Source of the DNA: Draconibacterium sediminis
Lineage (GTDB): Bacteria; Bacteroidota; Bacteroidia; Bacteroidales; Prolixibacteraceae
Direction of reading: 5' to 3'
Assembly (NCBI RefSeq): GCF_000949475.1
Contig: NZ_JRHC01000001.1
Span: 1,922,001 to 1,986,000 of the forward strand
DNA length: 64,000 nt
Part shown: one piece after another, positions 4,916 through 31,064 of the stretch
Numbering within the stretch: the stretch's first letter is position 1
Layout: every line of letters begins with the position of its first letter
The notes under the pieces: model-generated
What the model was told of the DNA's origin: nothing
What the model saw: only the letters and a program-made list of their open reading frames with translations
The model's database searches: none
Position numbers and translations under genes: made by a program

Positions 4916-4916
4916 A

Positions 4917-6041
4917 ATGAAGTTGATTAGTAAAATTATTATGGTATTGGTTGTGGTTGTTCTTACCGCCTGTGGACCAATGAATAAACAAACTTTTGAG
5001 TACCAAAACCCAATTTCAAATGGAATTGATGAACACGGCCTGCGCGACTGCCAGGTGATACGTGATGGCAACTGGTGGTACCTTACCGGAACATCCTATC
5101 CACACTGGAGCCGCCAGGAAACCGATGGTAACCTAAACAAAGGCGTGGTGTTGTACAAGTCGCAAGACCTGTCAAACTGGCAATTTGTAGATTATATTGT
5201 GAAACGCCCGGGGATAGATAAGTGGTACTACAATCGTTTTTGGGCACCAGAAATACAGAAAATTGGCGGTAAATACTATGCCTTGTTTAACTGTAGAAAC
5301 GATAGTTTAGGTTACATCGGGCAGCACACCGGATACGCCGTTTCCGATTACATTGAAGGGCCATATACTGTTGTAACAGAAAAGCAGCCACTTTGTAATG
5401 GTAATGATCTCACTTTTTTTGAAGATGATGACAACAAAGTTTGGGCATTCTGGAACCGGGGGCGTGAATTTGGAATCGGTTTTGCACAAATTGATTTGGA
5501 AACAGGAACTTTCTTGACAGAACCACAATCTGCCATTCAACCGGCAAAGGTAGATTACGAATACAACGACAAAGGAGAATTAGTAAACGAACCTGGTTAC
5601 GATGGCCGTCCAATACCCAAAGTTGCAAAATATTACGACTGGGATGCAATTGGTATTGAGGGGGCTTATGTAATTAAGAATAACGAAACTTATTACCTGT
5701 TCTATTCAAGCTGGACTCGCGGTTACGAAATTGGCTATGCCACTGCTCCGCAAATTAACGGCCCCTGGACAAAACACCCCGATAATCCGTTTTATGGAGC
5801 AATGAGTAGGCAGGCATGTGAAAAGAATGGCTTTGAATGGGAGGGAGATCCTGAAAATCCATTTAACCAGGTTGGGCATAACGAAATATTTAAAGGACCT
5901 GACGGTCGTTATTGGCTCTCGTGTCATGGAATTGGTGAAGACGGAATTCCTCAGTTGGTAATTGATCCGATAGAATTTGATTTAGATGGGAATATATACG
6001 CTAACGGACCAACTTATACTCCACAAACAGTTCTGTGGTAA
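4917..6041 (+). CDS. GH43-family lipoprotein glycosidase
   Basis: This 374-residue lipoprotein (VVLTAC, Cys19) is a single five-bladed propeller. The three expected GH43 acids are visible: Asp44 in GLRDCQV (base), Asp164 in NDLTFFEDDD (pKa modulator) and Glu248 in IGIEGAYVIK (acid). The WAPEIQKIGGKYY blade is intact. GH43 members act on alpha-L-arabinofuranosides, beta-xylosides or 1,3-beta-galactans, and sequence alone does not separate these. The start ATG is 1 bp past the stop of the previous gene, so translation is probably coupled. Confidence 0.85.
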   Translation: MKLISKIIMVLVVVVLTACGPMNKQTFEYQNPISNGIDEHGLRDCQVIRDGNWWYLTGTSYPHWSRQETDGNLNKGVVLYKSQDLSNWQFVDYIVKRPGIDKWYYNRFWAPEIQKIGGKYYALFNCRNDSLGYIGQHTGYAVSDYIEGPYTVVTEKQPLCNGNDLTFFEDDDNKVWAFWNRGREFGIGFAQIDLETGTFLTEPQSAIQPAKVDYEYNDKGELVNEPGYDGRPIPKVAKYYDWDAIGIEGAYVIKNNETYYLFYSSWTRGYEIGYATAPQINGPWTKHPDNPFYGAMSRQACEKNGFEWEGDPENPFNQVGHNEIFKGPDGRYWLSCHGIGEDGIPQLVIDPIEFDLDGNIYANGPTYTPQTVLW

Positions 6042-6149
6042 CTATATGGAAGATGCACTTTGTGCCGGGAAGCTCGACGAAATAATTAGTTGCGCAGGAA
6101 GGGGTATTTTCCATTGAGTGGATTAAATAAAACTAAAAAAAATAGTATC

Positions 6150-8078
6150 ATGTTAAAGTTAATTAGTATCGTTATTTCAGTATTCATTGCTGGCTTATTG
6201 GCTAATGCAAAAGAAGTTTCTGTAAAATCTCCTGATGGAAAATCAGAGTTTATTTTAAATGTTGGAGATAATTTAACCTATGCTGTTAATTTCAATGGGG
6301 AAGGTATAATCCAGAACGGGAGACTGGGTTTAAAAATGGTTAGCGCACCGGCATTTTGCAGTTCACTGGAAGTAGTAAATTCAGATATCAAAGAAGTAGA
6401 TGAAACCTGGCAACCAATGCAAAAACAACATGAATACATCCATAATCATTACAATGAATTAGCAGTTGATTTTAAGGAAGAAAAGTATCCTGGACGAGCA
6501 TTTAAAATTATTGCCAGGGCATATAACAACGGAATTGCCTTTCGTTACATTGTTCCATTGGGAGCTGACCGCCAGAAGTGTAACCTCGAAAAGGAACTAA
6601 CTACATTTAATTTTACATCGGATGTAACCTGCTGGGTTGCGGATTATAAAAGCTTCGCGTCGCACCAGGAGGAACCATTTAACAAGAATATGCTGAGTGA
6701 ATTAACTCCAGATGGCCTCTATGGTTTACCGATGACTTTAAAAGTTGCTGAAGATTGTTATGCGGCAATTACTGAAGCTCACTTGGATAAATGGTCGGGC
6801 ATGTATCTGAAGACAACAAAAAATGAAACAGAGCTTAGAACGGAACTTTCGAATATTAAAAACGATGGAACTGAAGATAAATTTGTATGCAAGCTGGAGT
6901 TACCACATCAGTCGCCCTGGAGAGTAATCATGTTGGGCAAAACACCTGGTGATTTGGTTGAGTCAGAAATTGTCATGAATTTGAATCCTCCATGTAAGCT
7001 TGAAGATACCTCATGGATTAAACCAGGTCTGTGTGCCTGGGACAGCTGGTGGAGCCGCGGGGTGGTGATGGAAAACGAAGAGATTAAAAAATATATCGAT
7101 CTGGCATCAGAAAATGAATTTCCTTATATGCTTATCGATTGGCAATGGTACGGTATGTATAATAAACCGGAAGCTGATGTTACAACTGTTGCCGACCAAC
7201 TGGATATGCCGATGATTATTGACTATGCCAAACAAAAAAATGTAAAGTTATGGTTGTGGTTATATTGGACTGATGTGACTCGTAACATGGAAAAAGCTTT
7301 TCAATTATATGAAAGCTGGGGAATTGCCGGTGTAAAAATTGACTTTATGGCGTTAGATGGCGCTGAAATGGTGGAATGGTACCATAATACAGTAAAACTA
7401 GCAGCAAAACACCATTTGATGGTGAATTTTCATGGTGCTTATAAACCTACCGGTTTTAGACGAACTTATCCTAATTTGATGACACGCGAAGGTGTATTAG
7501 GGAATGAGTACAATAAGTGGTCGTATATGGTAACACCTGAACATAATGTAACATTGCCGTTTACAAGAATGCTGGCAGGGCCTATGGATTACACTCCGGG
7601 AGGTTTTAGAAACTCATTAAAAGGAGAGTTTAAACCTCAGATAAACACCAGGGTTATGGGAACACGCTGTCACGAGCTGGCTAAATTTGTGGTGTTCGAT
7701 AGCCCGATAACAACCGTTTGCGATCACCCGGAGAACTACTCAGATCAACAATGTGTAGACTTTTTGCAACAAGTTAAAACAGTTTGGGATGATACCCGGG
7801 TATTAAAGGGAAAAATAGGTGAATATATTGTTATGGCCCGTAAAAGCAGAGATCAATGGTTTATTGCCGGAATGACAAACAGCGATGGACGAACTTTCGA
7901 TATCGATCTCGGTTTTCTTCCTGATGGTATAAACAATCTTAGAATATATCGTGACTGTGAAGCCACAAAAAAAGATGCAACAAAGTTAGAATTTGAAGAA
8001 ATGAAAATTGAATCAAAAGATCATCTTTCAATTACCTGTGCACCTGGTGGTGGCTTTGTGGGGATTATTTCAAAATAG
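6150..8078 (+). CDS. GH97-family retaining-type glycosidase (alpha-galactosidase or beta-L-arabinopyranosidase-like)
   Basis: I place the start at the ATG at 6150 (642 aa), because it gives a clean signal peptide (MLKLISIVISV...ANAK). An upstream in-frame TTG would add 20 unlikely residues. The N-terminal beta-sandwich begins KEVSVKSPDGK. The TIM barrel carries WDSWWSRG, LIDWQWYG and GVKIDFM, with Asp398 in the last. In this family a nucleophilic Asp at this place marks the retaining branch (alpha-galactosidase, beta-L-arabinopyranosidase), whereas the inverting SusB type has Gly there. NFHGAYKPTG and REGVLGNEY follow, as in other members. A 108-bp gap separates it from the GH43 gene upstream. 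It is probably periplasmic. Confidence 0.9.
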   Translation: MLKLISIVISVFIAGLLANAKEVSVKSPDGKSEFILNVGDNLTYAVNFNGEGIIQNGRLGLKMVSAPAFCSSLEVVNSDIKEVDETWQPMQKQHEYIHNHYNELAVDFKEEKYPGRAFKIIARAYNNGIAFRYIVPLGADRQKCNLEKELTTFNFTSDVTCWVADYKSFASHQEEPFNKNMLSELTPDGLYGLPMTLKVAEDCYAAITEAHLDKWSGMYLKTTKNETELRTELSNIKNDGTEDKFVCKLELPHQSPWRVIMLGKTPGDLVESEIVMNLNPPCKLEDTSWIKPGLCAWDSWWSRGVVMENEEIKKYIDLASENEFPYMLIDWQWYGMYNKPEADVTTVADQLDMPMIIDYAKQKNVKLWLWLYWTDVTRNMEKAFQLYESWGIAGVKIDFMALDGAEMVEWYHNTVKLAAKHHLMVNFHGAYKPTGFRRTYPNLMTREGVLGNEYNKWSYMVTPEHNVTLPFTRMLAGPMDYTPGGFRNSLKGEFKPQINTRVMGTRCHELAKFVVFDSPITTVCDHPENYSDQQCVDFLQQVKTVWDDTRVLKGKIGEYIVMARKSRDQWFIAGMTNSDGRTFDIDLGFLPDGINNLRIYRDCEATKKDATKLEFEEMKIESKDHLSITCAPGGGFVGIISK

Positions 8079-14114: not shown

Positions 14115-14459
14115 ATTTTTCGATATCAATCCAACATGGAATGTATTTGTATCAATACCTTTTTAAGGGAAAATAAATACCGTTGTGGAAACTAGATAGA
14201 GGTTTACACGGTAAAATTTCATATTCCCTACATCCTCTTCGAAAAGTTGAAATGCCCGAAAGAATAGATCATTTTGTACCATATGGTTGGGTAACACTTC
14301 GTGTCGCATAGTTTAATGCTGTTTAAGTAGCAGAAAAAGAGAAGGTTGAAATGTGTATATGAGCCTCGTTCTCTATTTGTACGATAAGGATAATCTTTTG
14401 TACAATCGGCAAACATAGTTTTTGAAACAGTTCCTAACTTGGTTTCAAAAACAAAAGTA
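14115..14459. other. Non-coding gap with three TTTGTAC repeats
   Basis: No supported gene. TTTGTAC occurs at 14273, 14376 and 14397, the last two 21 bp apart and close to the start of the next gene. They could be a binding site, but nothing else supports this. An in-frame TTG at 14439 exists but the ATG at 14460 is the better start for the following gene. Confidence 0.3.
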
Positions 14460-15938
14460 ATGCAAGTAAACCATTTACTAATAGCTTTACTATTATTTCT
14501 TGCTATAGCATTCCATGCCAGGGCACAGAACCCAAAATTGTTAATGGTTGTTCCACCCGATAAATTTCATGATACTGAATTTTCTGACCCGATGCAGGCA
14601 CTCGATTCTGCTGGGATAAATGTTACCATTTCAAGTCTTGTTACGGGTAATATCGGAGGAGTTAATGGCGATACAATACAGGCAAGCTTATTGCTTTCAG
14701 ATGTTGAAGTCGATGAGTTCGATGGTATCTGCATTATGGGAGGAAAGGGAACCGGACAATACATTTGGGGTAATGAATTGGTAAATCATTTACTTCATGA
14801 ATTTAAGTCGCAAAATAAATTAGTTACAGGTATTTGTGCCGGATCAGTTTCGCTGGCTAAGGCAGGTATTCTGGAAAAGAAGAATGCTACCACATACCCG
14901 GTAAAAGGTTTTATCCGGCAATTGAAAGAAAACGGTGCAATATATTCGACTGACTCAGTAGTCGTTGATGGAAATATTATTACATCAAATGGCCCAACTG
15001 GTGCGCGATCATTTGGGCGGGTTCTTGTACATAAACTTAATTCGGCAAAAAATGTGGGGTATTTGTTTGCTCATATGATGAAGGACGATTACGGTCACCT
15101 GTATTATTCCATTTCTGAAGACGGCTTAAAATGGACTTTGCTAAATAATGGCAAACGGATTAATGAGGAGTATCGTGGACATCCAGATATTTGTAAAGGG
15201 CATGATGGAAGATATTATCAAATAGGAGTGGAAGAGGAAACAGGCCGTCCGATACTTTGGATTTCAGAAGATTTAGTGGGGTGGAATGAAGAAAAGGACC
15301 TGCCGCGCGAAGTGTTTGAAAAAAATCTCGGCCACAAGGCCAATGCCTCATGGTATGGAGCACCAAAAATGTTCTTTGATGCGGCCACCGGAAAATATAT
15401 CATTACCTGGCACTGCCCGAAAGATGGGGTAGCACGCGAAGATGCTTCCAATTACTGGTGCAGTATGCGCACTTTTTTTGTTACCACCAACGATTTTAAA
15501 ACATTTACTCCGGCCAGCCGGCTTTTCGATTTTGAGATGGGAACCATTGATGTCATCATTCGGAAAGAGGGCGAATTGTATTATGCCATAATCAAAGATG
15601 AATGTGAAGCCACCGATTTATGGCCAACCGGAAAAAGCATCCGGGTATGCGTTTCGAAAAATCTGGAAGGACCTTATTCCTATCCCGGAGGAAAAATATC
15701 GCCCAGTTATCGTGAAGCGCCTACAGTAATTCCCCAAAAGCAGGGGGGATGGCTAATGTATTTCGAACAGTATCCCGGGGTGCAATATGAAGCTGCTCAG
15801 GCTCCTTCATTAATGGGGCCGTGGTACGATGTATATACCATGAAAATTAAAATTCCAGAGGAATGTCGGCACGGTTGTATGATTTCTTTAACTGAAACTC
15901 AGTATCAATCTATTTTGAAACACTACGGCACACAATAG
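14460..15938 (+). CDS. Exported DJ-1/PfpI domain fused to a GH43/GH32-like propeller
   Basis: The ATG at 14460 gives 492 residues with a clear signal peptide ending at ARAQ23. Residues about 26-195 are a DJ-1/PfpI domain: KLLMVVPPDKFHDTEF, CIMGGKGTGQYIW and the nucleophile elbow GICAGS with Cys126. Residues about 198-492 read as a five-bladed propeller of the GH43/GH32 kind: HLYYSISEDGLKW, RGHPDICKGHDGRYYQIG, WYGAPKMFFD, YWCSM and EAPTVIPQKQGGWLMYF. I know DJ-1-like domains mostly as cytoplasmic chaperones, amidotransferases or proteases, so an exported fusion to a sugar-cleaving fold is odd. The junction is continuous with no stop or shift. A long gap precedes it, so it may have its own promoter. 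Confidence 0.75.
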   Translation: MQVNHLLIALLLFLAIAFHARAQNPKLLMVVPPDKFHDTEFSDPMQALDSAGINVTISSLVTGNIGGVNGDTIQASLLLSDVEVDEFDGICIMGGKGTGQYIWGNELVNHLLHEFKSQNKLVTGICAGSVSLAKAGILEKKNATTYPVKGFIRQLKENGAIYSTDSVVVDGNIITSNGPTGARSFGRVLVHKLNSAKNVGYLFAHMMKDDYGHLYYSISEDGLKWTLLNNGKRINEEYRGHPDICKGHDGRYYQIGVEEETGRPILWISEDLVGWNEEKDLPREVFEKNLGHKANASWYGAPKMFFDAATGKYIITWHCPKDGVAREDASNYWCSMRTFFVTTNDFKTFTPASRLFDFEMGTIDVIIRKEGELYYAIIKDECEATDLWPTGKSIRVCVSKNLEGPYSYPGGKISPSYREAPTVIPQKQGGWLMYFEQYPGVQYEAAQAPSLMGPWYDVYTMKIKIPEECRHGCMISLTETQYQSILKHYGTQ

Positions 15939-16064: not shown

Positions 16065-17171
16065 ATGAAATCCGTCACTTTATTTATTATCCTGGTAGTT
16101 ATTTATTTTTCTTCTAATTCGTGCAAAATTAACAAGAATAATCCAAAAGAATTAGAATCGGGGAAAAACACAAAAGTGGAGATTCAAGGAGAGAAGTTTC
16201 TGATAAACGGAAAACCAACATTTGAAGGCCGGATTTGGAACGGGGTTTCCGTTGAAGGATTACTTCCAAATTCACGTATGGTTCAGGGGATTTTTGATGA
16301 CCTTAATCCTGAAACGGTTACACGATGGAATTATCCTGATGGGAAATGGAGTGCTAAACGAAACAATGATGAATTTGTTGCTGCCATGAGCGATTGGCAT
16401 AATTATGGTTTGCTGGCATTTACCATAAATATGCAGGGTGGAAGCCCAATGGGGTATGGTAATAAAAATTGGTATAATTCTGCGTATTACGAAGATGGGA
16501 AATTACGCAAAGACTATATGCAGCGGTTAGATAATATTCTTAAAAAAGCCGATCAATTAGGAATGGTTCCAATATTAGGGCTGTTTTATTTTGGTCAGGA
16601 TCAAAACCTTAAAGATGAGGCTGCCGTTATCGCAGCAACAGATAACGCTATCGAGTGGTTATCGGAAAAAGGATATAAAAATGTAATAATAGAAGTAGGC
16701 AATGAAAGTAATAATAGAGCCTACGATCACAGCATTCTAAAGCAAGACAGAATTCATGAACTAATTTTGAGGATAAAAGACAAAGCTCCATATCTGTTTG
16801 TATCAACAAGTTTTAATGGTAATACACTTCCCACCGAAAAAGTTGTTGAGGTAGCCGATTTTATACTTGTCCACGGAAACGGAATTGAAAATTCGGAACG
16901 TATAACCGAAATGGTCAAACAAATTAGAGCTATGGATTCTTATAGTCCCAAACCAATTGTTTTTAATGAAGATGATCATTTTGATTTTGAAAAGGATCAG
17001 AATAATTATATTAATGCAACCCTGAATTATGCATCGTGGGGATTTTTTGATTATAGAATGGAAGGTGAAGATTTTGACGAAGGTTTTCAAAGTATCCCCG
17101 TAAACTGGGAAATAAGTTCAGACCGTAAATTAGCATTTTTCAAGAAAACACGCCAAATATTTATCAAGTAA
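16065..17171 (+). CDS. Clan GH-A-type TIM-barrel lipoprotein, probable glycosidase
   Basis: A 368-residue probable lipoprotein (SSNSC, Cys20). It begins with a short strand, FLINGKPTFEGRIWNG, as in many GH5/GH39/GH140-like enzymes that start with an N-terminal barrel lead-in. Two acids fit the clan GH-A pattern: Glu214 in IIEVGNESN (acid/base at the end of strand 4, Asn-Glu) and Glu302 in IVFNEDDHF (nucleophile at strand 7). I cannot assign a numbered family. It stands alone between two predicted GntR sites and just ahead of the susC gene, so it is likely a surface or periplasmic glycosidase of that locus. Confidence 0.7.
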   Translation: MKSVTLFIILVVIYFSSNSCKINKNNPKELESGKNTKVEIQGEKFLINGKPTFEGRIWNGVSVEGLLPNSRMVQGIFDDLNPETVTRWNYPDGKWSAKRNNDEFVAAMSDWHNYGLLAFTINMQGGSPMGYGNKNWYNSAYYEDGKLRKDYMQRLDNILKKADQLGMVPILGLFYFGQDQNLKDEAAVIAATDNAIEWLSEKGYKNVIIEVGNESNNRAYDHSILKQDRIHELILRIKDKAPYLFVSTSFNGNTLPTEKVVEVADFILVHGNGIENSERITEMVKQIRAMDSYSPKPIVFNEDDHFDFEKDQNNYINATLNYASWGFFDYRMEGEDFDEGFQSIPVNWEISSDRKLAFFKKTRQIFIK

Positions 17172-23100: not shown

Positions 23101-23745
23101 ATGGAAATAATACATACAGATTTAAGCTTTGAAGTTTACAAAAGGCTAAAAACGATGATTCTTGCCAACGAGTTTGAGCCGGGAGAGAAATTGGTTCAGG
23201 AGCAAATTGCTGCTATGTTTGGTGTTAGTAGAATGCCGTTGCACAAAGCATTTCAAATGCTGGAAAATGAGATGTTGGTTGAAAATTTGCCAAGAAGAGG
23301 ATTTTATGTAACGGAAATTGATAATGCTAAATTACTAGATGCTTTCGAGTGTCGGGAAGCATTGGAGGGAATTGCAGCAAGAAGAACAACACAGGTTATT
23401 ACGGAAAAAGAGCTTGATGATTTAAAATCACTTTTTAAACCGTTTATTAGCAAGATTAAGATAGATATTAAAAAATACATTGAAGCCGATCAGGCTTTTC
23501 ATAACTCAATATTGCAGTTAAGTGGGAATCAGATTCTACAGAAATTTGAAGTGGTAAAAAACATTACTTCTCAAACATATAGAGGAGGTTTAATTCGTCA
23601 ACCTGAAGAAACCCTGCCCGAACATTTAGCAATAATTGATGCCATATCAAAAGGTGATGCGCAACTTGCCGAGCAATTAATGCGTGAACATTCGGTTAAA
23701 ACCCAGGAATTAATCCGGGAACAAATCAATAAAGAAAAAACCTAA
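23101..23745 (+). CDS. GntR-family regulator, FCD (FadR-like) subfamily
   Basis: I take the ATG at 23101 (214 aa); a TTG 24 bp upstream lies inside the palindrome. Residues about 5-75 are the winged helix: EVYKRLKTMI, AAMFGVSRMPLHKAFQML and PRRGFYV. Residues about 85-210 form the all-helical FCD effector domain, with the metal ligands Asp/His in EADQAFHNSI and two later His residues (PEHLAIID, MREHSV). FCD regulators often sense sugar acids or sugar phosphates and bind T-x-GT-AC-x-A palindromes. Four such sites around this gene suggest control of the susC locus, itself and the rpiB-dhaKL operon. An MFS gene follows 11 bp later, so it may be under the same promoter. Confidence 0.93.
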   Translation: MEIIHTDLSFEVYKRLKTMILANEFEPGEKLVQEQIAAMFGVSRMPLHKAFQMLENEMLVENLPRRGFYVTEIDNAKLLDAFECREALEGIAARRTTQVITEKELDDLKSLFKPFISKIKIDIKKYIEADQAFHNSILQLSGNQILQKFEVVKNITSQTYRGGLIRQPEETLPEHLAIIDAISKGDAQLAEQLMREHSVKTQELIREQINKEKT

Positions 23746-23756
23746 GCAATAATTTC

Positions 23757-25049
23757 ATGAAAAAAACAATCATTCCGCAACGTTTTGTGCTTGTAACTTT
23801 TACTTTCCTGATATCAGTTTTAATGTATGTTGACAGGGCGTGTATTGGTGCTGCAAAAGGAAGTGCAAGTAGTGAATTTGGTTTAAACAACATACAATGG
23901 GCGTGGGTGATGGCAGCCTTTACTTTGGGGTATGCGCTTTTGCAAACTCCATCGGGTAAACTGGCCGATAAAAAAGGTGCTCGTTTGGTAATGAGCCTTA
24001 TTATTACGATATGGTCGGTGTTAACAGCATTAACTGGTGCTGCCTGGAACTTTATATCGATGGTACTTATTCGTTTTCTGTTTGGAGCAGGCGAAGCAGG
24101 TGCCTTTCCAACCTTGTCAAAAGTGGTTTATAAATGGTTTCCTGTAAACGAACGGGGAATCATTCAGGGCATAAACTTTTCTGGTTCAAGAATAGGTGGC
24201 GCTGTGGCTTACCCAATTGTTGTTGCTTTAATTGCTTCGTTAGGGTGGAGAGGAAGCTTTTTTATTTTTGGTGCTGTTGGATTTGTTTTTGCTTTAGTTT
24301 GGTGGCTCTATTTCCGTAATTCGCCCGAAGAATCAAAATTAATAGGCGAAGAAGAAAAGCAATATATTTTAGAAACCCGTCAGCAGGACGGATCAGGTAA
24401 AAAAGGGACGCTTACTTTTGCCAAAACTTTAAGATCTAAAAATATGTTGCTAGCCATGTTACAATATGTTGGCAGCAACTTCACCTTCTATTTTACCCTA
24501 ACCTGGATGTTCCCGTATTTAAAGGAAGCATTAAAAAGTACCGGTACCACAGCCAGCTTTTGGGCTATGGCTCCTTTAATTGGCGGTGCTGTTGGTAACT
24601 GGGTTTCGGGAATATTGGTTGATAAAATTTATAAATCGGGTAATTTAACTCTGTCAAGAAGATTGCCGGCTATAATCGGATTTTCTTTGGCCGCAGCAGG
24701 AGTGGTTTTAATGACCAATGCCACGAGCGATTTGTATAAAGTGATGTTTTTAACCCTGGCCATTTTCGGAGCCGATATGACCTTAAGTCCTTCGTGGGCA
24801 TTTTGTATCGATATTGGAAAAGAAAATGCAGGTGCGGTTTCCGGAACCATGAACATGGCCGGCAACCTTGGTGCCTTTACCTCGATTCTGGCTTTTGGAT
24901 ACCTGGCCGACGGTTTAATAAAATCGGGGGTGGATGCCAAAGAAGCACTTGCCGGAAATGACATGTTTTTCTATATCTGTGCCGGGCTTAGTATTGTTTC
25001 TATTGTGGCCTGGTTATTAATGAATCCGAATAAAAGTATAAAAGAATAA
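23757..25049 (+). CDS. MFS transporter, ACS-like (hexuronate/organic anion type)
   Basis: A 430-residue inner-membrane protein with about 12 predicted transmembrane helices. The first helix carries LMYVDRACIG, the loop 2-3 signature is GKLADKKGARLVM, and GAGEAGAFPTLSKVV in helix 4 is typical of the anion:cation symporter family that includes hexuronate and galactonate carriers. The GntR neighbour and the downstream isomerase and kinase genes suggest that it takes the released monosaccharide, sugar acid or small polyol into the cytoplasm. The exact cargo cannot be read from sequence. Confidence 0.88.
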   Translation: MKKTIIPQRFVLVTFTFLISVLMYVDRACIGAAKGSASSEFGLNNIQWAWVMAAFTLGYALLQTPSGKLADKKGARLVMSLIITIWSVLTALTGAAWNFISMVLIRFLFGAGEAGAFPTLSKVVYKWFPVNERGIIQGINFSGSRIGGAVAYPIVVALIASLGWRGSFFIFGAVGFVFALVWWLYFRNSPEESKLIGEEEKQYILETRQQDGSGKKGTLTFAKTLRSKNMLLAMLQYVGSNFTFYFTLTWMFPYLKEALKSTGTTASFWAMAPLIGGAVGNWVSGILVDKIYKSGNLTLSRRLPAIIGFSLAAAGVVLMTNATSDLYKVMFLTLAIFGADMTLSPSWAFCIDIGKENAGAVSGTMNMAGNLGAFTSILAFGYLADGLIKSGVDAKEALAGNDMFFYICAGLSIVSIVAWLLMNPNKSIKE

Positions 25050-25097: not shown

Positions 25098-25961
25098 ATG
25101 AAACTAGCATTAAATACTCTTGTATACGAGGTAGGGAATAAAGGCCCTGAAGAGTCGCTTCGTTCGGCGGCAAAATATGGATTTAAATATATCGAATATG
25201 CCGGTATCCGAAAGGGAAATCCGCAAACCATGAGCGCAGAACAAAAAAAGGAAGCGATCAGAATTGTAAAGGATAACGGCATTCATAGTACCCAAATGTT
25301 ATTGGTAGCTACAAAAGATACAGCTCATCCGGATAAGAAAAAACGCGATGCTGTTTTCGACTATATGAAAACCTGTGCCGAATTTCAGATGGAACTGGGG
25401 GGCCGGCAGTTGCTGGTGTGTTGGGGAGGCGGTTTATATGAACTGGGTGTAAGCCCCGAGCAATCGTGGTTATATATGCTCGAAAATGTTGGACGTTTTG
25501 CCGAGTGGTGTCTCGATAAAAACCTGCTGGTGGGTATTGAACTCGATCCGCATGTATATTTTATTTGCAATAACACCTATAAACTGGCAAAAGCGGTTGA
25601 AGACATTGGATTGCCAAACATTTACCCCAATATCGATGTGGGGCACCTTGTAATTACCAGGGAAGAACCCGCACAACTTGAGAAATTGAAAAGCCGTATG
25701 TTGCATGTACATTTAAGCGAAACAGAAAGTTTTGCACATACAAACAGTATTTTAGGAACTGGTGCCGTGCCGTTCCGTCAGTATGTTGATAAATGCATCG
25801 ACTTGGGGATTGAAGAAAATTGCGCTAAAATAGGTGAACCTTGCGTTGCCGGTATTGAAATGGGAAGTGAAGCCAGTGGAGGCTTTGTCGAAGATCCTGA
25901 TTTTTGGGTGGAAGAAAGCCTGAAATTTTTGGAGAAAGAACTTCCTCATGTTAAAAGGTAA
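25098..25961 (+). CDS. TIM-barrel sugar (phosphate) isomerase/epimerase
   Basis: A 287-residue cytoplasmic protein of the xylose-isomerase-like TIM-barrel family. Metal ligands can be placed at GIELDPH (Glu), PNIDVGH (Asp, His), HVHLSETE and AGIEMG (Glu). It lacks a signal peptide. Proteins of this family include EryH and LerI, which isomerise L-erythrulose 1-phosphate to D-erythrulose 4-phosphate, and also hydroxypyruvate isomerase and tagatose 3-epimerase. The immediate presence of RpiB and DhaK/DhaL genes favours the erythrulose-phosphate kind of job, but that is inference from context. A TGTATACG sequence lies 23 bp inside the gene and may be chance. Confidence 0.82.
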   Translation: MKLALNTLVYEVGNKGPEESLRSAAKYGFKYIEYAGIRKGNPQTMSAEQKKEAIRIVKDNGIHSTQMLLVATKDTAHPDKKKRDAVFDYMKTCAEFQMELGGRQLLVCWGGGLYELGVSPEQSWLYMLENVGRFAEWCLDKNLLVGIELDPHVYFICNNTYKLAKAVEDIGLPNIYPNIDVGHLVITREEPAQLEKLKSRMLHVHLSETESFAHTNSILGTGAVPFRQYVDKCIDLGIEENCAKIGEPCVAGIEMGSEASGGFVEDPDFWVEESLKFLEKELPHVKR

Positions 25962-25989
25962 GGCTTCGTTTTTTTATAGCATGTAAAAA

Positions 25990-25997
25990 TGTATACA
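25990..25997. promoter_or_regulatory. TGTATACA palindrome, predicted GntR operator 4 (rpiB promoter)
   Basis: Fourth copy, in the context AAAATGTATACAGTAT, 27 bp before the rpiB start and in the only sizeable gap inside the catabolic block. It suggests a separate, regulated promoter for rpiB-dhaK-dhaL. Confidence 0.6.
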
Positions 25998-26024
25998 GTA
26001 TAATGAATTCTAAAAAGGGCAAAT

Positions 26025-26486
26025 ATGAAAATATGTATTGATTGCGACGATGCTGCAGTAACCTTGAAAAAAGTGATCTACGAGCATTTAAAAAGCAAGG
26101 GAATTGATATAACCGATCTGAATTATTCAGAAGGAAAAGAAAATGCTTTGTACCCCGAAATTGGATTTAACCTGGCAAAAGAAGTTGCTGCAGGTAAATA
26201 TGACAGGGGAATCAGTATTTGTGGAACAGGATTGGGCATGGCAATGATTGCGAATAAAGTGGAAGGTGTATTTGCCGGTACCTGTCACGATGTGTTCTCG
26301 GCAGAACGATTACGGAAAAGCAACGATGCTCAAATCATAACAATGGGTGAACGTGTAATAGGGCCTGAGCTTGCAAAAAAAATTATTGATGCCTGGCTCG
26401 GATCTGAATTTGAAGGAGGAGGATCTGCTCCCAAAGTGGCGCAAATGCGTAATTTGGAAAGAGGTTCGTTTCACCCGGAACTATAA
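26025..26486 (+). CDS. rpiB: RpiB/LacAB-family sugar-phosphate isomerase
   Basis: A 153-residue cytoplasmic isomerase. The active-site loop SICGTGLGMAMIANK holds the catalytic Cys, and CHDVFSAERLRKSNDAQIITMGERVIG aligns with the C-terminal half of RpiB. The family interconverts aldose and ketose phosphates: ribose 5-phosphate, allose 6-phosphate, galactose 6-phosphate, and D-erythrulose 4-phosphate in the erythritol route (EryI). Lying between a TIM-barrel isomerase and DhaK/DhaL it is more likely a pathway enzyme than the housekeeping ribose isomerase. An operator-like palindrome sits directly upstream. Confidence 0.92.
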   Translation: MKICIDCDDAAVTLKKVIYEHLKSKGIDITDLNYSEGKENALYPEIGFNLAKEVAAGKYDRGISICGTGLGMAMIANKVEGVFAGTCHDVFSAERLRKSNDAQIITMGERVIGPELAKKIIDAWLGSEFEGGGSAPKVAQMRNLERGSFHPEL

Positions 26487-26504
26487 AACCAAAACTATAT
26501 TATC

Positions 26505-27509
26505 ATGCAAAAATTTGTAAACGATCCGTCGAAGGTAGTTGACGAAATGTTAGAAGCTTATGTAAAAGTGCACGCCGATTTGGTTAGCACTACCGAAAAC
26601 GAACGGGTTATAAAATATAAACACGCACCCGTTAAAGGCAAAGTTGGAATTGTTACCGGGGGTGGTTCGGGGCACAAACCGGCTTTTGTGGGGTATGTTG
26701 GTAGAAATATGGTTGATGCGGTTGCTTGTGGCGAAATATTTTCGTCGCCGCCTGCTCAAATGTTTTACGATGCCATTAAAGCTGCCGATGGAGGAAAAGG
26801 AGTAGCGCTGTTATATGGGAATTATGCCGGCGATAATATGAATGTTGCTATGGCAATGGATGAAGCAGAAGATGAGGGTATTGAAGTGAAAAAGGTAGTA
26901 GCCAACGACGATGTGCCTTCAGCTCCAAAAGGAGAGGAAGCCAAACGCCGTGGTGTAGCCGGTGAAATATTAATGTGGAAAGTTGGTGGTGCCAAAGCCG
27001 CCATGGGAGCTTCACTTGATGAAGTTATTGCCGCTGCACAAAAAGCCATCAAAAATACCCGTAGTATGGGAGTTGGCCTGGCTCCCTGTGCAATCCCCGA
27101 AGTGGGGCATCCTAATTTTACCATCGAAGAAGGCAAAATGGAAGTGGGTATAGGGCATCATGGGGAACCGGGTATTGAAGTGTGCGACCTCGAACCTTCA
27201 GCAAAAATTGCTCAACGTTTTTGCAATGTAATTCTTCCCGATCTTCCGTTCGAAAGTGGCGATGAAGTTGTTGTTCTTATATCCGGTTTGGGTTCAACCC
27301 CCGTAATGGAGCAATATATTGTGTTTAACGATATTGAAAAAATACTAAAAGAGAGAGGCATCAAAATTTATCTTTCTTATGTAGGTAACTATTTTACATC
27401 GCTCGAAATGGCGGGAGTAACCTGTACTTTAATGAAGTTGGATGAAGAGCTGAAGGAATGCATGGATTATGAATGCGATTCGGTGGGTATGCAACAGTTT
27501 CAACGATAA
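26505..27509 (+). CDS. dhaK: DhaK-like ketose kinase, substrate-binding subunit
   Basis: A 334-residue DhaK-fold protein. The phosphate-site loop is TGGGSGHKPAFVGYVG (His57), and the covalent substrate His is His219 in GIGHHGEPG. YGNYAGDN is also intact. In dihydroxyacetone kinases the first loop normally reads GGGSGHEPAH; here Lys58 and Phe61 replace Glu and the second His. I recall similar changes in family members acting on larger ketoses such as erythrulose, so the substrate may not be dihydroxyacetone. It starts 18 bp after rpiB, and dhaL follows after 2 bp. No PTS-type DhaM gene is present, so ATP is the likely phosphate donor. Confidence 0.9.
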   Translation: MQKFVNDPSKVVDEMLEAYVKVHADLVSTTENERVIKYKHAPVKGKVGIVTGGGSGHKPAFVGYVGRNMVDAVACGEIFSSPPAQMFYDAIKAADGGKGVALLYGNYAGDNMNVAMAMDEAEDEGIEVKKVVANDDVPSAPKGEEAKRRGVAGEILMWKVGGAKAAMGASLDEVIAAAQKAIKNTRSMGVGLAPCAIPEVGHPNFTIEEGKMEVGIGHHGEPGIEVCDLEPSAKIAQRFCNVILPDLPFESGDEVVVLISGLGSTPVMEQYIVFNDIEKILKERGIKIYLSYVGNYFTSLEMAGVTCTLMKLDEELKECMDYECDSVGMQQFQR

Positions 27510-27511
27510 AA

Positions 27512-28162
27512 ATGGCAAAAATGAAGACATTTTCGAATAAAGAGGGAGCCCTGATCATTGACAAAATGATTTTGGCCATACAGGAAAATAAGCAATATCT
27601 AAGTGATATTGACGGTTTAATTGGTGATGGTGATCATGGTATAAACATGAACAAAGGATTTACAATGTGCCGTGAAGAGCTGGATAATAATCCGGGGGAT
27701 TTGGCGCATTCTGCAAAAATCCTCTCAAAAATCTTAATGATGAAAATTGGCGGATCGATGGGGCCACTTTATGGAAAACTATACCGAGGTTTTGCCAGCG
27801 AATTAAGTGGCAAAGATGAAATTGGAATTTCGGAAATGGGAGCGGCACTCGAAGGAATGCTTTCTTCTATACAGGCGATATCTCCGGCCAAACCTGGCGA
27901 CAAAACACTAATCGACACGTTGGTACCGGCAGTAGAGGCCTTTAAAAAAGCACAGGCCGAAGGAAAAGAGTTCGATGTTGCACTGGACGAAATGAAAGCA
28001 GCAGCTATAGTTGGCCGCGATTCAACAAAAGATATGCTTGCCCAACTGGGACGGGCCAGCCGCCTGGGTGAACGCTCACGCGGGGTTCTGGATGCCGGTG
28101 CAACCTCGTGTTGCTTGCTTTTGGGCGTGTTGGCCGATACTTCAATTGAATTAGTAAAATAG
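27512..28162 (+). CDS. dhaL: DhaL-like kinase, nucleotide-binding subunit
   Basis: The ATG at 27512, 2 bp after the dhaK stop, gives 216 residues; an upstream in-frame start would overlap dhaK by 37 bp and is less likely. The magnesium-nucleotide loop DGLIGDGDHGINMNKGF supplies the metal-binding Asp residues, and GGSMGPLYGKLYRG and SRLGERSRGVLDAGA match the rest of the eight-helix barrel. The subunit supplies the phosphate for the sugar held by DhaK. The tight spacing implies coupled translation and a two-subunit enzyme. The DhaL and DhaK parts are separate genes, unlike the fused ATP-dependent kinases of some bacteria. Confidence 0.92.
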   Translation: MAKMKTFSNKEGALIIDKMILAIQENKQYLSDIDGLIGDGDHGINMNKGFTMCREELDNNPGDLAHSAKILSKILMMKIGGSMGPLYGKLYRGFASELSGKDEIGISEMGAALEGMLSSIQAISPAKPGDKTLIDTLVPAVEAFKKAQAEGKEFDVALDEMKAAAIVGRDSTKDMLAQLGRASRLGERSRGVLDAGATSCCLLLGVLADTSIELVK

Positions 28163-28169
28163 AAAAACT

Positions 28170-28221
28170 CTCACAAAGCTGCGAAAGTACATTCTTTGTG
28201 TCTTAGCGCCTCTGCGAGAAA
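28170..28221. repeat. Dispersed 'CTTTGxG' type short repeat in the dhaL/isomerase gap
   Basis: The gap holds CTTTGTGTCTTAGCGCCT followed by CTGCGAGAAA, facing an inverted partner CTCACAAAGCTGCGAAAG. This resembles a small element (CTTTGCGTCTTTGCGCCTTTGCG-like) that I recall being scattered through genomes of Bacteroidota and other phyla. Its role is unknown. Confidence 0.5.
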
Positions 28222-28235
28222 CAAAAACAAATATT

Positions 28236-29204
28236 ATGTCAGAAATAAAACAAGGAGTTATAATTGGTTTTCTGGGAAAAACACAGGATCGTTTTTCTGA
28301 ATACCAGGCGCCGGTAACTACCGAGCAGAAATTAGAATTTGTATCGAAAATTGATGGTTTTACCGGAGTTGAAATGGTTTTTCCGTACGAAAATGAAGGA
28401 CCGGCAGAAACCAAAGCTTTAATGGATAAATACGGACTTGAGTTCGCAGCAATAAACGTAAATATAAAAAAGGAAACCGAATGGGTACCCGGAGCTCTTT
28501 CGCGCCCCGATAAAGGGATTCGCGACCGTGCAGTTGCCATGATTAAAAAAGCAAAAGACTTTGCAAAAGCTGTGGGCGCACCACATGTAACTTGCTGCCC
28601 TTTAAGCGACGGATACGATGTGCTTTTCCAGATAAACTATAAAACAGCATGGAACCACATGGTGGAAACTTTTGCTGAGGCTGCCGATTATTTACCTGAA
28701 ATTCCTTTGTTTCTTGAACCAAAATATTCAGAAACACGTGTACATTGCCAAATCGATTCAACCGCAAAAGGTGTGCTGTTGTTAAAAGATATTCAGTGCA
28801 AAAACACCGGGATTACAATTGATATGGGGCACTCGTTGCAAAGTCAGGAAAATCCGGCGCAGGCACTTTCCCTCATTTATGAAAACGGATTTGATGCCTA
28901 CATTCATACCAACGATAACGATACCAAGGCCGACTGGGATTTAATTGGTGCCAGCCGCCACTTTTTGCATTACATCGAGCTGATGTTTTGGGCACAGGAA
29001 TACGGTTACAATAAATATTTTACAACGGATGCTTCACCACGTATTTTCGATGTCTTGGAATTTTTTAACCGTCACTCGGAAATAACCACTGGTGCTTATA
29101 AACTGGCACAAAAATTAAACCGCCAACAAATTCTGGAAATGATGCGCATTGAAGATTACAACGGATTAATGCAAATGGTTAATAAAGAAATTTACAGGAT
29201 ATAG
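28236..29204 (+). CDS. Second TIM-barrel sugar isomerase/epimerase
   Basis: A 322-residue cytoplasmic protein of the xylose-isomerase-like TIM-barrel superfamily, not closely similar to the one at 25098. Likely metal-binding strands are GVEMVFPYENEG, LFLEPKYSE, ITIDMGHS, YIHTNDND and TTDASPR. With the RpiB and the other TIM barrel this makes three isomerases in one block, one more than a simple kinase-isomerase route needs. It could act first, converting an aldose to a ketose before phosphorylation by DhaKL. Sugar substrate not resolvable from sequence. Confidence 0.8.
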   Translation: MSEIKQGVIIGFLGKTQDRFSEYQAPVTTEQKLEFVSKIDGFTGVEMVFPYENEGPAETKALMDKYGLEFAAINVNIKKETEWVPGALSRPDKGIRDRAVAMIKKAKDFAKAVGAPHVTCCPLSDGYDVLFQINYKTAWNHMVETFAEAADYLPEIPLFLEPKYSETRVHCQIDSTAKGVLLLKDIQCKNTGITIDMGHSLQSQENPAQALSLIYENGFDAYIHTNDNDTKADWDLIGASRHFLHYIELMFWAQEYGYNKYFTTDASPRIFDVLEFFNRHSEITTGAYKLAQKLNRQQILEMMRIEDYNGLMQMVNKEIYRI

Positions 29205-29243: not shown

Positions 29244-31064
29244 ATGAAACATCTACTGATTTTTGCATTGGCGGCATTTCTCCTCTTTTCGTGTACGCCC
29301 AATAAACCTGAGATTACAGGAGAATTAAAAACCTGGCACAAGATAACTTTAACCTTCGATGGACCTGAATCATCCGAAATGACCACACCCAATCCGTTTA
29401 CTGATTACCGGCTGGATGTAATCTTTTCGAAAGGTGATCAGAATTTTGTAGTGCCGGGCTATTTTGCTGCCGATGGTCAGGCTGCTTTTACATCTGCGGA
29501 TTCAGGAAATAAGTGGCGTGTTCATTTTTCACCAAATGCGGAAGGAGAGTGGACCTACAAAGTTTCATTTAAAAAAGGAGCAGGTATTGCCGTTAGCAAA
29601 GATGAAGGCGAAAGTGCTAAATTTATGGACGGTGCAACAGGGACTTTCATGGTTGAAAAAACCGATAAATCAGGTCGTGATTTGCGTGCGCACGGAAGAC
29701 TGCAATACGTAGGCGAGCATTATCAGCGATTTGCCGAAACAGGACAATATTTTTTAAAATGTGGTGCCGATGCTCCTGAAAATTTTCTGGCCTATTACGA
29801 AATAGACAATACGCCAAATGTAGGCGATCGTTTAAAGAAATGGGAAGATCACGCTGGTGATTATAACCAGGATGCTGAAGCATTTTTATGGGGGCCGGAC
29901 AAACAAAAAGGAAAGAATCTCTTAGGTGCAATTAACTACCTTTCATCGAAAGGAATGAATGCTTTTTCGTTTCTGACCTTTAATATCGATGGCGACGACC
30001 GTAACGTTTATCCATACTTGCTGAAGGTAAGTAACGAAGAATACGAAAAGGCCGCTAACGTGAAAAAGAATCCGAAACAGTGGGAAGAGCTTACTATTCA
30101 CGATCGGTTTGATGTGTCGAAAATGGACCAGTGGGAACAGATATTTGCTTATGGCGAAATGAAAGGGATGTTTCTGCACTTTAAAACCCAGGAAAACGAA
30201 AACGACCAGAAAATGGATGGAGGCGAGGTAGGACCTGAAAGGAAACTTTATTACCGCGAACTAATTGCACGTTACAGTCATCATTTGGCGTTGAACTGGA
30301 ACCTTGGCGAAGAAATGACACAAACCGTTCAGCAGGTAAAAGACATGGCGGCTTACTTTGCTAAAAACGATCCGTATAAAAACCTGGTTGTGGTGCATAC
30401 TTTTCCCGAGCAGCATGATAAGTATTACGCTCCTTTGGTTGGCGAAAATTCAGAACTTACCGGCTTGTCGATACAAACCAATCAACCCGATTTTTCGCGT
30501 GTGCACAGTGCCGTTAATAAATGGGTAAAAGCGTCGGCTAAAGCGGGCAAAAAGTGGGTAGTTGCTGTTGACGAACCTGGTGATGCTCAGCACGCATTAA
30601 TTACTGATGAGGAAAATCCGGAGCATAATGACGCTCGCATTAACGGACTTTGGGGAACATTTATGGCCGGTGGCTGTGGTACCGAATGGTATTTTGGCTA
30701 TAAACACCCGCATTCCGATCTTACCTGCGAATCGTGGCGTTCGCGCGACCTGTTTTGGGATCAGTGTAATATTGCGCTCGATTTCTTTAACGAAAACGAA
30801 ATTCCGGTTGAAACCATGGTTAATGCCAACGAGCTTACCTCTACCGAAAATGATTATGTGTTTGCAAAAACCGGCCAGGTGTATCTTATATACAGTAAAA
30901 CCGGCGAGAATATCGAAATTAACTTACCCGATGTTGGTTACACCGCTACCTGGTTTAATCCAAGAAACGGAAAAAGCTTGCAAATAACCGAAAGTACAGC
31001 AAACGAAGAAATTAAGCTCCAATGCCCTACAGAACAGGATTGGCTACTTTACCTACAAAAATAA
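29244..31064 (+). CDS. DUF5060-type glycosidase-like lipoprotein
   Basis: A 606-residue lipoprotein (LLFSC, Cys17). Residues about 28-135 form a beta-sandwich (TWHKITLTFDGPE through EGEWTYKVSF) as in DUF5060 domains. A TIM barrel follows (about 150-520) with INYLSSKGMNAFSFLTF and two candidate catalytic acids, Glu356 in NLGEEM and Glu444 in VAVDEPGDAQH. A small C-terminal beta domain ends YTATWFNPRNGKSLQI. Relatives occur with clan GH-A enzymes that act on algal galactans and with apiosidase-like proteins, so it may hydrolyse the target glycan. It lies 39 bp after the second isomerase and so seems part of the same operon. Confidence 0.72.
   Translation: MKHLLIFALAAFLLFSCTPNKPEITGELKTWHKITLTFDGPESSEMTTPNPFTDYRLDVIFSKGDQNFVVPGYFAADGQAAFTSADSGNKWRVHFSPNAEGEWTYKVSFKKGAGIAVSKDEGESAKFMDGATGTFMVEKTDKSGRDLRAHGRLQYVGEHYQRFAETGQYFLKCGADAPENFLAYYEIDNTPNVGDRLKKWEDHAGDYNQDAEAFLWGPDKQKGKNLLGAINYLSSKGMNAFSFLTFNIDGDDRNVYPYLLKVSNEEYEKAANVKKNPKQWEELTIHDRFDVSKMDQWEQIFAYGEMKGMFLHFKTQENENDQKMDGGEVGPERKLYYRELIARYSHHLALNWNLGEEMTQTVQQVKDMAAYFAKNDPYKNLVVVHTFPEQHDKYYAPLVGENSELTGLSIQTNQPDFSRVHSAVNKWVKASAKAGKKWVVAVDEPGDAQHALITDEENPEHNDARINGLWGTFMAGGCGTEWYFGYKHPHSDLTCESWRSRDLFWDQCNIALDFFNENEIPVETMVNANELTSTENDYVFAKTGQVYLIYSKTGENIEINLPDVGYTATWFNPRNGKSLQITESTANEEIKLQCPTEQDWLLYLQK

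What the first reader, a model, noticed from the sequence alone, without database searches (positions are those of the whole stretch)
25098..29204. Possible four-carbon ketose pathway: DhaK + DhaL + RpiB + two TIM-barrel isomerases
The block joins a DhaK/DhaL kinase, an RpiB-type isomerase and two xylose-isomerase-like TIM barrels, with an MFS carrier. In the erythritol/threitol routes (EryH/EryI and LerK/LerI), L-erythrulose is phosphorylated by a DhaK-type kinase, converted by a TIM-barrel isomerase to D-erythrulose 4-phosphate and then by an RpiB-type enzyme to D-erythrose 4-phosphate. The same three enzyme types are here in one operon-like block. Its placing in a polysaccharide locus of Bacteroidota, with an extra isomerase, would be a new setting. 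The sugar that feeds it (a tetrose, an apiose-like branched sugar, a uronate-derived product) is open.
Basis: inference. Interest (0 to 1): 0.85.

Follow-up and report, generated by a model that had tools for sequence, protein, structure and literature searches.

The report
Four-carbon sugar operon in Bacteroidota
A compact set of sugar genes that recurs in a few Bacteroidota appears to turn an unusual sugar into a four-carbon ketose and then into erythrose 4-phosphate, using two little-known isomerases whose natural sugar is not yet known.

Summary
In detail: TIM1, RpiB, DhaK, DhaL and TIM2 lie head to tail at 25098-29204, behind a GntR regulator and an MFS carrier, in a sulfatase/GH43 polysaccharide locus. 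It is a discrete cassette. Of 19 loci from one scan of named genomes, 13 hold all five genes, in the same order (guest genes intervene in some); four contigs end too early, one has TIM1 alone, and L074 has TIM1-TIM2 with a transaldolase-like gene instead. One carrier is an Opitutales MAG. The lower half looks four-carbon: RpiB has Ser for the ring-opening His in 17 of 17 cassette copies, as in erythritol and apionate loci, unlike the genome's own second RpiB. The kinase is about 62% identical to kinases beside such RpiBs, 36% to E. coli DhaK; the genome has no DhaM. TIM2 looks like a xylose-isomerase-type aldose isomerase, TIM1 like a ketose 3-epimerase. Most likely: aldose > L-erythrulose > D-erythrulose > D-erythrulose 4-P > erythrose 4-P. 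The feeding sugar is unknown; an acid is possible.

The parts
23101..23745 (+). GntR/FCD regulator of the cassette
   Evidence: Pfam GntR + FCD; a GntR homologue precedes the MFS gene in 9 of 19 related loci
23757..25049 (+). MFS carrier, anion:cation symporter type
   Evidence: best NCBIfam TIGR00893 D-galactonate transporter, 232 bits against a cut-off of 395; no significant similarity to the RbtT-type polyol carrier of L056
25098..25961 (+). TIM1, AP_endonuc_2; predicted ketose 3-epimerase (L-/D-erythrulose)
   Evidence: the 17-row profile matches six solved sequences, best an 'epimerase' (1.8e-6) and D-tagatose 3-epimerase, then uncharacterised MJ1311, 3ktc and L-ribulose 3-epimerase; E148, D180, H205, E254 in 19 of 19 cassette copies
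26025..26486 (+). RpiB-family isomerase, DerI/EryI-like (D-erythrulose 4-P to D-erythrose 4-P)
   Evidence: Ser99 in place of the ring-opening His in 17 of 17 copies; E. coli and own second RpiB split off from it, 99/96, on long branches; NF051858 158 bits, below the cut-off of 240
26505..27509 (+). DhaK, ketose-binding kinase subunit; predicted D-erythrulose 4-kinase
   Evidence: Dak1; H57, D110, H218 in 16 of 16 copies; about 62% to DhaK of L050, L051, L052a, L056, 36% to E. coli DhaK; tree
27521..28162 (+). DhaL, nucleotide subunit (start taken at the ATG matching homologues)
   Evidence: Dak2, TIGR02365 163 bits over cut-off 138; no EIIA-man/DhaM match in the genome, so ATP is the likely donor
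28236..29204 (+). TIM2, xylose-isomerase-type aldose-ketose isomerase
   Evidence: E161, K163, D196, H224, D233, D235, D265 in 14 of 14 copies; E-x-K aligns with xylose isomerase and 3ktc, D-x-D with 3ktc; own clade with Roseibium/Paracoccus homologues
29244..31064 (+). secreted DUF5060 + Collagen_bind_2 protein, possible glycan hydrolase of the cassette
   Evidence: DUF5060 genes lie in or beside the cassette in L062, L064, L073, L078
16065..17171 (+). cellulase-like lipoprotein (Pfam Cellulase at E 0.0018, below cut-off), a frequent guest of the cassette elsewhere
   Evidence: homologues beside or inside the cassette in L062, L064, L065, L070, L072, L073, L075, and a 28% one in L074
17339..22237 (+). 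SusC/SusD pair of the surrounding polysaccharide locus

Best explanation
The block is one catabolic operon. The carrier brings in a small sugar or sugar acid, probably released by the surrounding glycan locus. TIM2, with a xylose-isomerase-type metal site and Lys, turns an aldose into a ketose. TIM1, of the free-ketose 3-epimerase kind, adjusts its C3 configuration, giving D-erythrulose. DhaK/DhaL with ATP makes D-erythrulose 4-phosphate. The RpiB protein, which lacks the ring-opening His because its substrate cannot close a furanose ring, makes D-erythrose 4-phosphate for the pentose phosphate pathway. Shown: gene order, conservation, family, motif and tree placements. Inferred: every substrate; the kinase and RpiB steps are far better founded than the TIM1 and TIM2 steps.
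For: Conserved order in the 13 loci, of 19, that hold all five genes. RpiB: Ser99 in 17 of 17, as in the erythritol and apionate loci; His kept in E. coli and own second RpiB and in L100-L102, the non-cassette RpiB of three further genomes. A fungal RpiB with the same His-to-Ser change was suspected by its authors to act on shorter substrates (PMC3212906, passages). The E. coli H99N mutant loses 26-fold in kcat (PMC4783025, passages). Kinase: near relatives include Klebsiella and Salmonella plasmid loci with a dehydrogenase-like gene, MFS (RbtT-type, tested in Klebsiella only), DhaK, DhaL, SN-type RpiB and transaldolase (Klebsiella also transketolase), with no Tpi listed in the 9-kb flanks shown (PLSDB gene tables are incomplete). 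The genome keeps a separate HN-type RpiB, one TpiA, a transketolase and two transaldolase-family proteins, and no DhaM match. TIM1 and TIM2 profiles.
Against: L074 keeps TIM1 and TIM2, but its genome has no DhaK and a single RpiB, of HN type; a transaldolase-like, an HbpS and a BKACE gene follow. A transaldolase acting on a tetrulose makes little sense. The carrier's family moves anions, and relatives sit by TRAP (L039, L040) or tripartite (L077) systems, pointing to an acid. No polymer is known to me that yields a tetrose. The DerI model's cut-off is not reached. The RpiB split rests on two ribose-type rows with long branches. No structure or assay was possible.
Confidence: 0.5

Rival explanations
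1. Sugar-acid route: a five-carbon sugar acid is isomerised by TIM2 and then moved to a 3-keto acid by TIM1, which loses CO2 to give erythrulose; DhaK/DhaL and RpiB finish as above. Chemically it parallels 3-oxo-isoapionate decarboxylation to L-erythrulose (recalled).
For: Anion-type MFS; a tripartite-type carrier beside the cassette in L077 (TctC by Pfam; the two other genes by eye); TRAP genes with the nearest TIM2 homologues; a beta-keto-acid cleavage enzyme in the variant L074.
Against: No dehydrogenase or known decarboxylase gene in the cassette; TIM2 has a sugar-isomerase site; the MFS scores below its family cut-off; the L077 carrier lies on the other strand.
Confidence: 0.2
2. D-apiose route: TIM2 makes apulose, DhaK/DhaL is an apulose kinase, and the product is cleaved elsewhere.
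For: TIM2 is a distant relative of the L041/L042/3ktc-like group, and L041 sits with split transketolase and an FGGY kinase like the published apiose cluster (apsI, aplK, aptAB; PMC13001218, passages).
Against: TIM2 lies outside that clade at 25-28% identity; no split AptAB seen in the genome; RpiB and TIM1 have no part in it.
Confidence: 0.1
3. Dihydroxyacetone kinase plus a ribose-5-phosphate isomerase that merely share an operon with sugar isomerases.
For: It is the only Dak1 protein in the genome; its catalytic His and Asp residues are kept.
Against: RpiB active site and tree, 36% to E. coli DhaK, a separate HN-type RpiB in the genome.
Confidence: 0.1
4. The two TIM barrels make a five- or six-carbon ketose that DhaK/DhaL phosphorylates and the RpiB isomerises; no tetrulose is involved.
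For: The L074 variant with a transaldolase-like gene.
Against: Loss of the ring-opening His and the four-carbon company of the nearest kinases and RpiBs.
Confidence: 0.1

Closest known systems
D-threitol / D-erythrulose route of Mycolicibacterium smegmatis (DerK + DerI; the name DerK is recalled; route mentioned in PMC12780249 passages)
   Same: kinase on erythrulose, then an RpiB-type isomerase to erythrose 4-phosphate, no Tpi-type step (enzyme families recalled)
   Different: a polyol dehydrogenase feeds it there; here two TIM-barrel enzymes and an anion-type carrier; the mycobacterial sequences were not compared
Enterobacterial plasmid locus ADH-MFS-DhaK-DhaL / RpiB-Tal(-Tkt) (L050, L056)
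   Same: kinase about 62% and RpiB 47-55% identical, RpiB also SN-type, no Tpi listed nearby
   Different: MFS (RbtT/DalT-type in L056), dehydrogenase-like gene, own transaldolase; no TIM1 or TIM2
Erythritol route (EryABC, TpiB/EryH, RpiB/EryI; L057) and the apionate locus L055/L061
   Same: RpiB of the DerI type; L061 has DhaK/DhaL
   Different: Tpi-type isomerase present there, absent here; kinase only 43% identical to that of L061
D-apiose isomerase ApsI clade (L041, L042; 3ktc resembles L042 by eye)
   Same: TIM2 shares the metal/Lys pattern in large part
   Different: 25-28% identity, separate clade, no AptAB or FGGY partner in the cassette
D-tagatose / L-ribulose 3-epimerases
   Same: among the few solved structures that the TIM1 profile matches
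   Different: E-values only 1e-3 to 1e-5; TIM1 is a closed family, 6 of 393 genomes of the order, each above 590 bits

Membership tests
L-erythrulose / erythritol route (LerK-LerI-DerI, EryH-EryI) | DhaK-type kinase | tested here: met
   Dak1/Dak2
L-erythrulose / erythritol route (LerK-LerI-DerI, EryH-EryI) | kinase of the LerK branch, using L-erythrulose | not tested
   no LerK sequence was at hand to compare
L-erythrulose / erythritol route (LerK-LerI-DerI, EryH-EryI) | Tpi-type isomerase (EryH/TpiB; that LerI is of this family is recalled) | tested here: not met
   one PF00121 match in the genome, outside the window; TIM1 and TIM2 are AP_endonuc_2
[quoted passage not shown]
   158 bits; yardsticks L055 255.7 and L057 257.3; L054 186, L051 169, L056 165; own second RpiB 79.4. 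The model's name suggests it is rhizobial
[quoted passage not shown]
   that this defines the family is my inference from the yardsticks
D-erythrulose kinase route (DerK-DerI) | activity on D-erythrulose | not testable with these tools
   needs an assay
PTS dihydroxyacetone kinase DhaKLM | DhaM / EIIA-man partner | tested here: not met
   0 matches in the genome
Housekeeping RpiB | His at E. coli positions 10 and 99 | tested here: not met
   Asp and Ser in the window
D-apiose pathway (ApsI, AplK, AptAB) | isomerase in the ApsI clade | tested here: not met
   tree; that clade is named by context only
D-apiose pathway (ApsI, AplK, AptAB) | split transketolase AptAB | tested here: not met
   one strong Transketolase_N match in a 678-aa frame; the other is weak, 21.7 bits in a 655-aa frame
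Xylose-isomerase-type aldose isomerase (TIM2) | E-x-K and D-x-D metal/Lys pattern | tested here: met
   14 of 14 copies; E-x-K aligned to solved xylose isomerase, D-x-D aligned to 3ktc only; role of each residue recalled

The most novel reading that the evidence does not exclude
A dedicated bacterial route for a free four-carbon sugar, or a five-carbon sugar acid that loses one carbon, in which two previously unrecognised isomerase families feed D-erythrulose to a DerK/DerI-like pair. Its home in sulfatase-rich glycan loci would mean that some sulfated glycan or glycoside carries a sugar that is degraded through erythrulose.
Probability: 0.35. Interest if true: 0.72.

Novelty: new variant of a known kind. 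Interest (0 to 1): 0.55.

Why it matters
[quoted passage not shown] This cassette gives a concrete, cloneable candidate, two isomerase families to assay, and a genetic handle on which sugar of a sulfated glycan is unusual. It also suggests a rule for annotation: an RpiB with Ser for the ring-opening His is probably not a ribose 5-phosphate isomerase.

Tried and rejected
D-apiose as the sugar: TIM2 outside the ApsI clade, no AptAB seen in the genome, RpiB left without a role. D-apionate with TIM2 as a decarboxylase (OiaC, recalled): no oxidoisomerase among the window proteins scanned near it and a sugar-isomerase site in TIM2. TIM1 as EryC: phmmer found no match to the EryC of L057. The DUF5060 protein as a GH140-like apiosidase: search of solved structures gave only E 0.019 to a putative hydrolase. 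PUL substrate from GH content: left open.

The first TIM2 tree had outgroup rows that were badly extracted (L008_og 38 aa and L016_og 45 aa); it was rebuilt without any outgroup and only that one is used. For the trees three duplicate rows (L043-L045) were left out, and fused kinases were cut to the first 345 residues (L051, L054) or to residues after 330 (L052b). In one search four minus-strand RpiB loci were read on the wrong strand; one search reads three of them (L103, L105, L106) and still not L099. My notes say that Sde182-type genes flank the TIM gene of L046 on both sides; the frames show both upstream.
Full report
WHAT IS THERE. At 25098-29204, all on the + strand, lie TIM1, RpiB, DhaK, DhaL and TIM2; a GntR/FCD regulator and an MFS carrier precede them and a secreted DUF5060 protein follows, with gaps of 11-73 bp throughout. 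DhaL most likely starts at 27521, the ATG that matches its homologues. The neighbours form a polysaccharide locus with a SusC/SusD pair and further SusD genes, several GH43, GH97, GH51, GH20, five sulfatases and two hybrid two-component regulators. Nearest named contigs are Prolixibacteraceae MAGs, one labelled Draconibacterium.

A CONSERVED CASSETTE. TIM1 is either present at high identity or absent: with a 17-row profile, 6 of 393 genomes of the order (own included) match at E 1e-12 or better, the weakest of them at 596 bits. TIM2 at E 1e-15 is in 4 of 198 genomes of the order, own included. In 296 genomes of the phylum the best match outside the own genome is 29% identical, E 3e-35. One scan of named genome contigs with a TIM1 alignment gave 19 loci: 18 from Bacteroidota MAGs and one from an Opitutales MAG, L077. 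All five genes in the same order are in 13 (L062, L064, L066, L067, L068, L071, L073, L075-L080). L065, L069, L070 and L072 break off at the contig end. L063 has TIM1 alone on a 3.5-kb contig, and its genome has a cassette-type RpiB elsewhere. L074 has TIM1 and TIM2 only. The scan used exact peptide patterns and finds close relatives only. Guest genes recur: DUF5060 (L062, L064, L073, L078), a nucleoside-hydrolase-like secreted protein (L072, L073, L076, L079; no Pfam match, likeness by eye), HbpS (L073-L076, L080), and the 368-residue cellulase-like lipoprotein that also lies at window 16065-17171. The Opitutales copy suggests transfer between phyla, unless that contig is misbinned.

THE LOWER HALF. 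The window RpiB carries Asp and Ser where E. coli RpiB has His10 and His99. Ser99 holds in 17 of 17 cassette copies. The same kind of loss is seen in RpiB of an erythritol locus (L057) and an apionate locus (L055), and in RpiB of four other plasmid loci with DhaK-type kinases (L050, L051, L054, L056); it is not seen in E. coli RpiB or in the genome's own second RpiB, nor in the only RpiB of the L074 genome (L100) or the second RpiB of the L072 and L078 genomes (L101, L102). The second RpiB of the L077 genome (L099) could not be read by my script. E. coli and the own second RpiB split from all 24 other rows in the tree, 99/96, on long branches, and the rest is poorly resolved. Authors of a fungal structure with the same His-to-Ser change suspected shorter-chain substrates (PMC3212906, passages read), and passages of PMC4783025 give that His a ring-opening role and a 26-fold loss in kcat for E. 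coli H99N. A tetrose 4-phosphate cannot form a furanose ring, so the His is not needed (chemistry, inferred). Against this, the curated DerI model gives 158 bits, under its cut-off of 240; the yardsticks score 256 and 257, the own second RpiB 79.

The kinase is 61.7-62.6% identical to DhaK of L050, L051, L052a and L056, 43% to that beside the apionate locus, and 36% to E. coli DhaK; the tree puts it with the first group, 100/99, though the E. coli and L054 rows are long. L052a, in Sinorhizobium, has no RpiB listed nearby. In the Klebsiella plasmid locus L056 the company is a dehydrogenase-like gene, an RbtT/DalT-type polyol carrier at 544 bits, DhaK, DhaL, RpiB, transaldolase and transketolase, with no Tpi listed; the Salmonella locus L050 is alike without the transketolase. 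No EIIA-man match is in the genome, so DhaK/DhaL probably uses ATP. The genome also has a single TpiA, one clear transketolase and two transaldolase-family proteins, enough to drain erythrose 4-phosphate.

THE UPPER HALF. TIM2 keeps E161, K163, D196, H224, D233, D235 and D265 in 14 of 14 copies, and its E-x-K stretch aligns with that of xylose isomerase; the catalytic meaning of these residues is recalled. Its place in an unrooted tree is with Roseibium and Paracoccus homologues (31-32%), apart from L041, L042 and L046. L041 lies with a split transketolase and an FGGY kinase, like the gene set that passages of PMC13001218 name for D-apiose, so that clade is probably ApsI; TIM2 is not in it. 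The TIM1 profile matches six solved sequences at E 0.01 or better: an 'epimerase' (1.8e-6), D-tagatose 3-epimerases (2.5e-5), uncharacterised MJ1311, 3ktc and L-ribulose 3-epimerase (1e-3). TIM1 keeps four would-be metal ligands in 19 of 19.

MECHANISM. Most likely: aldose to L-erythrulose (TIM2), L- to D-erythrulose (TIM1), D-erythrulose to its 4-phosphate (DhaK/DhaL), then erythrose 4-phosphate (RpiB). That M. smegmatis has three- or four-step routes through D/L-erythrulose is in passages of PMC12780249; LerK, LerI and DerI are described in PMC10733421 passages, DerK is recalled. The last two steps I hold at about 0.7, the first two at about 0.35.

WHAT SPEAKS AGAINST IT. L074 keeps TIM1 and TIM2 but has no DhaK in its genome and one RpiB, of HN type; a transaldolase-like gene, an HbpS homologue and a beta-keto-acid cleavage enzyme follow. 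That would fit a longer ketose or an acid. The carrier belongs to an anion-moving family, below its cut-off; a tripartite-type carrier lies beside the cassette in L077 on the other strand (TctC by Pfam, the other two genes by eye), and TRAP genes precede the nearest TIM2 homologues. So a sugar acid is a real rival. No glycan source of a tetrose is known to me.

NOVELTY. Full-text searches for erythrulose with Bacteroidetes and kinase (2 papers, listing only), L-erythrulose with apionate and decarboxylase (0), L-erythrulose or threitol terms (listings), apiose terms (listings) and isoapionate (2 papers, passages) showed me no such cassette; the library lacks most subscription papers, and the Huang 2015 and Carter 2018 pathway papers I know only by recall and citation. 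I file it as a new variant of a known kind.

Noticed in passing
L074 10001-14565: Variant cassette TIM1-TIM2-transaldolase-like-HbpS-BKACE in a Prolixibacteraceae MAG whose genome has no DhaK and a single, HN-type RpiB.
   Followed up: partly
L077 4243-15087: The cassette in an Opitutales (Verrucomicrobiota) MAG next to tripartite-carrier-like genes on the other strand: transfer between phyla, or a misbinned contig.
   Followed up: partly
G000 C13:434632-434974 (own genome, outside the window): Two partial LacAB_rpiB matches with stop codons inside: looks like a broken RpiB-family gene.
   Followed up: no
L046 (G219) 3192-7316: Two nucleoside-hydrolase-like secreted genes (Sde182 type; the second by Pfam, the first by eye) directly upstream of a TIM barrel of the apiose-isomerase clade; the same secreted family sits near the cassette in L065 and L078 (Pfam) and L062 (by eye). 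A possible furanosidase link.
   Followed up: partly
window 14439-15938: DJ-1/PfpI domain fused to a weak GH43-like C-terminal part (below Pfam's cut-off).
   Followed up: no
window 2768-4915: 715-residue protein without any Pfam match inside the polysaccharide locus; a 34% relative in L073.
   Followed up: no
L050, L056 (enterobacterial plasmids): Plasmid-borne loci with DhaK, DhaL and an SN-type RpiB, annotated in L050 as ribose 5-phosphate isomerase B; probably misnamed four-carbon enzymes.
   Followed up: partly
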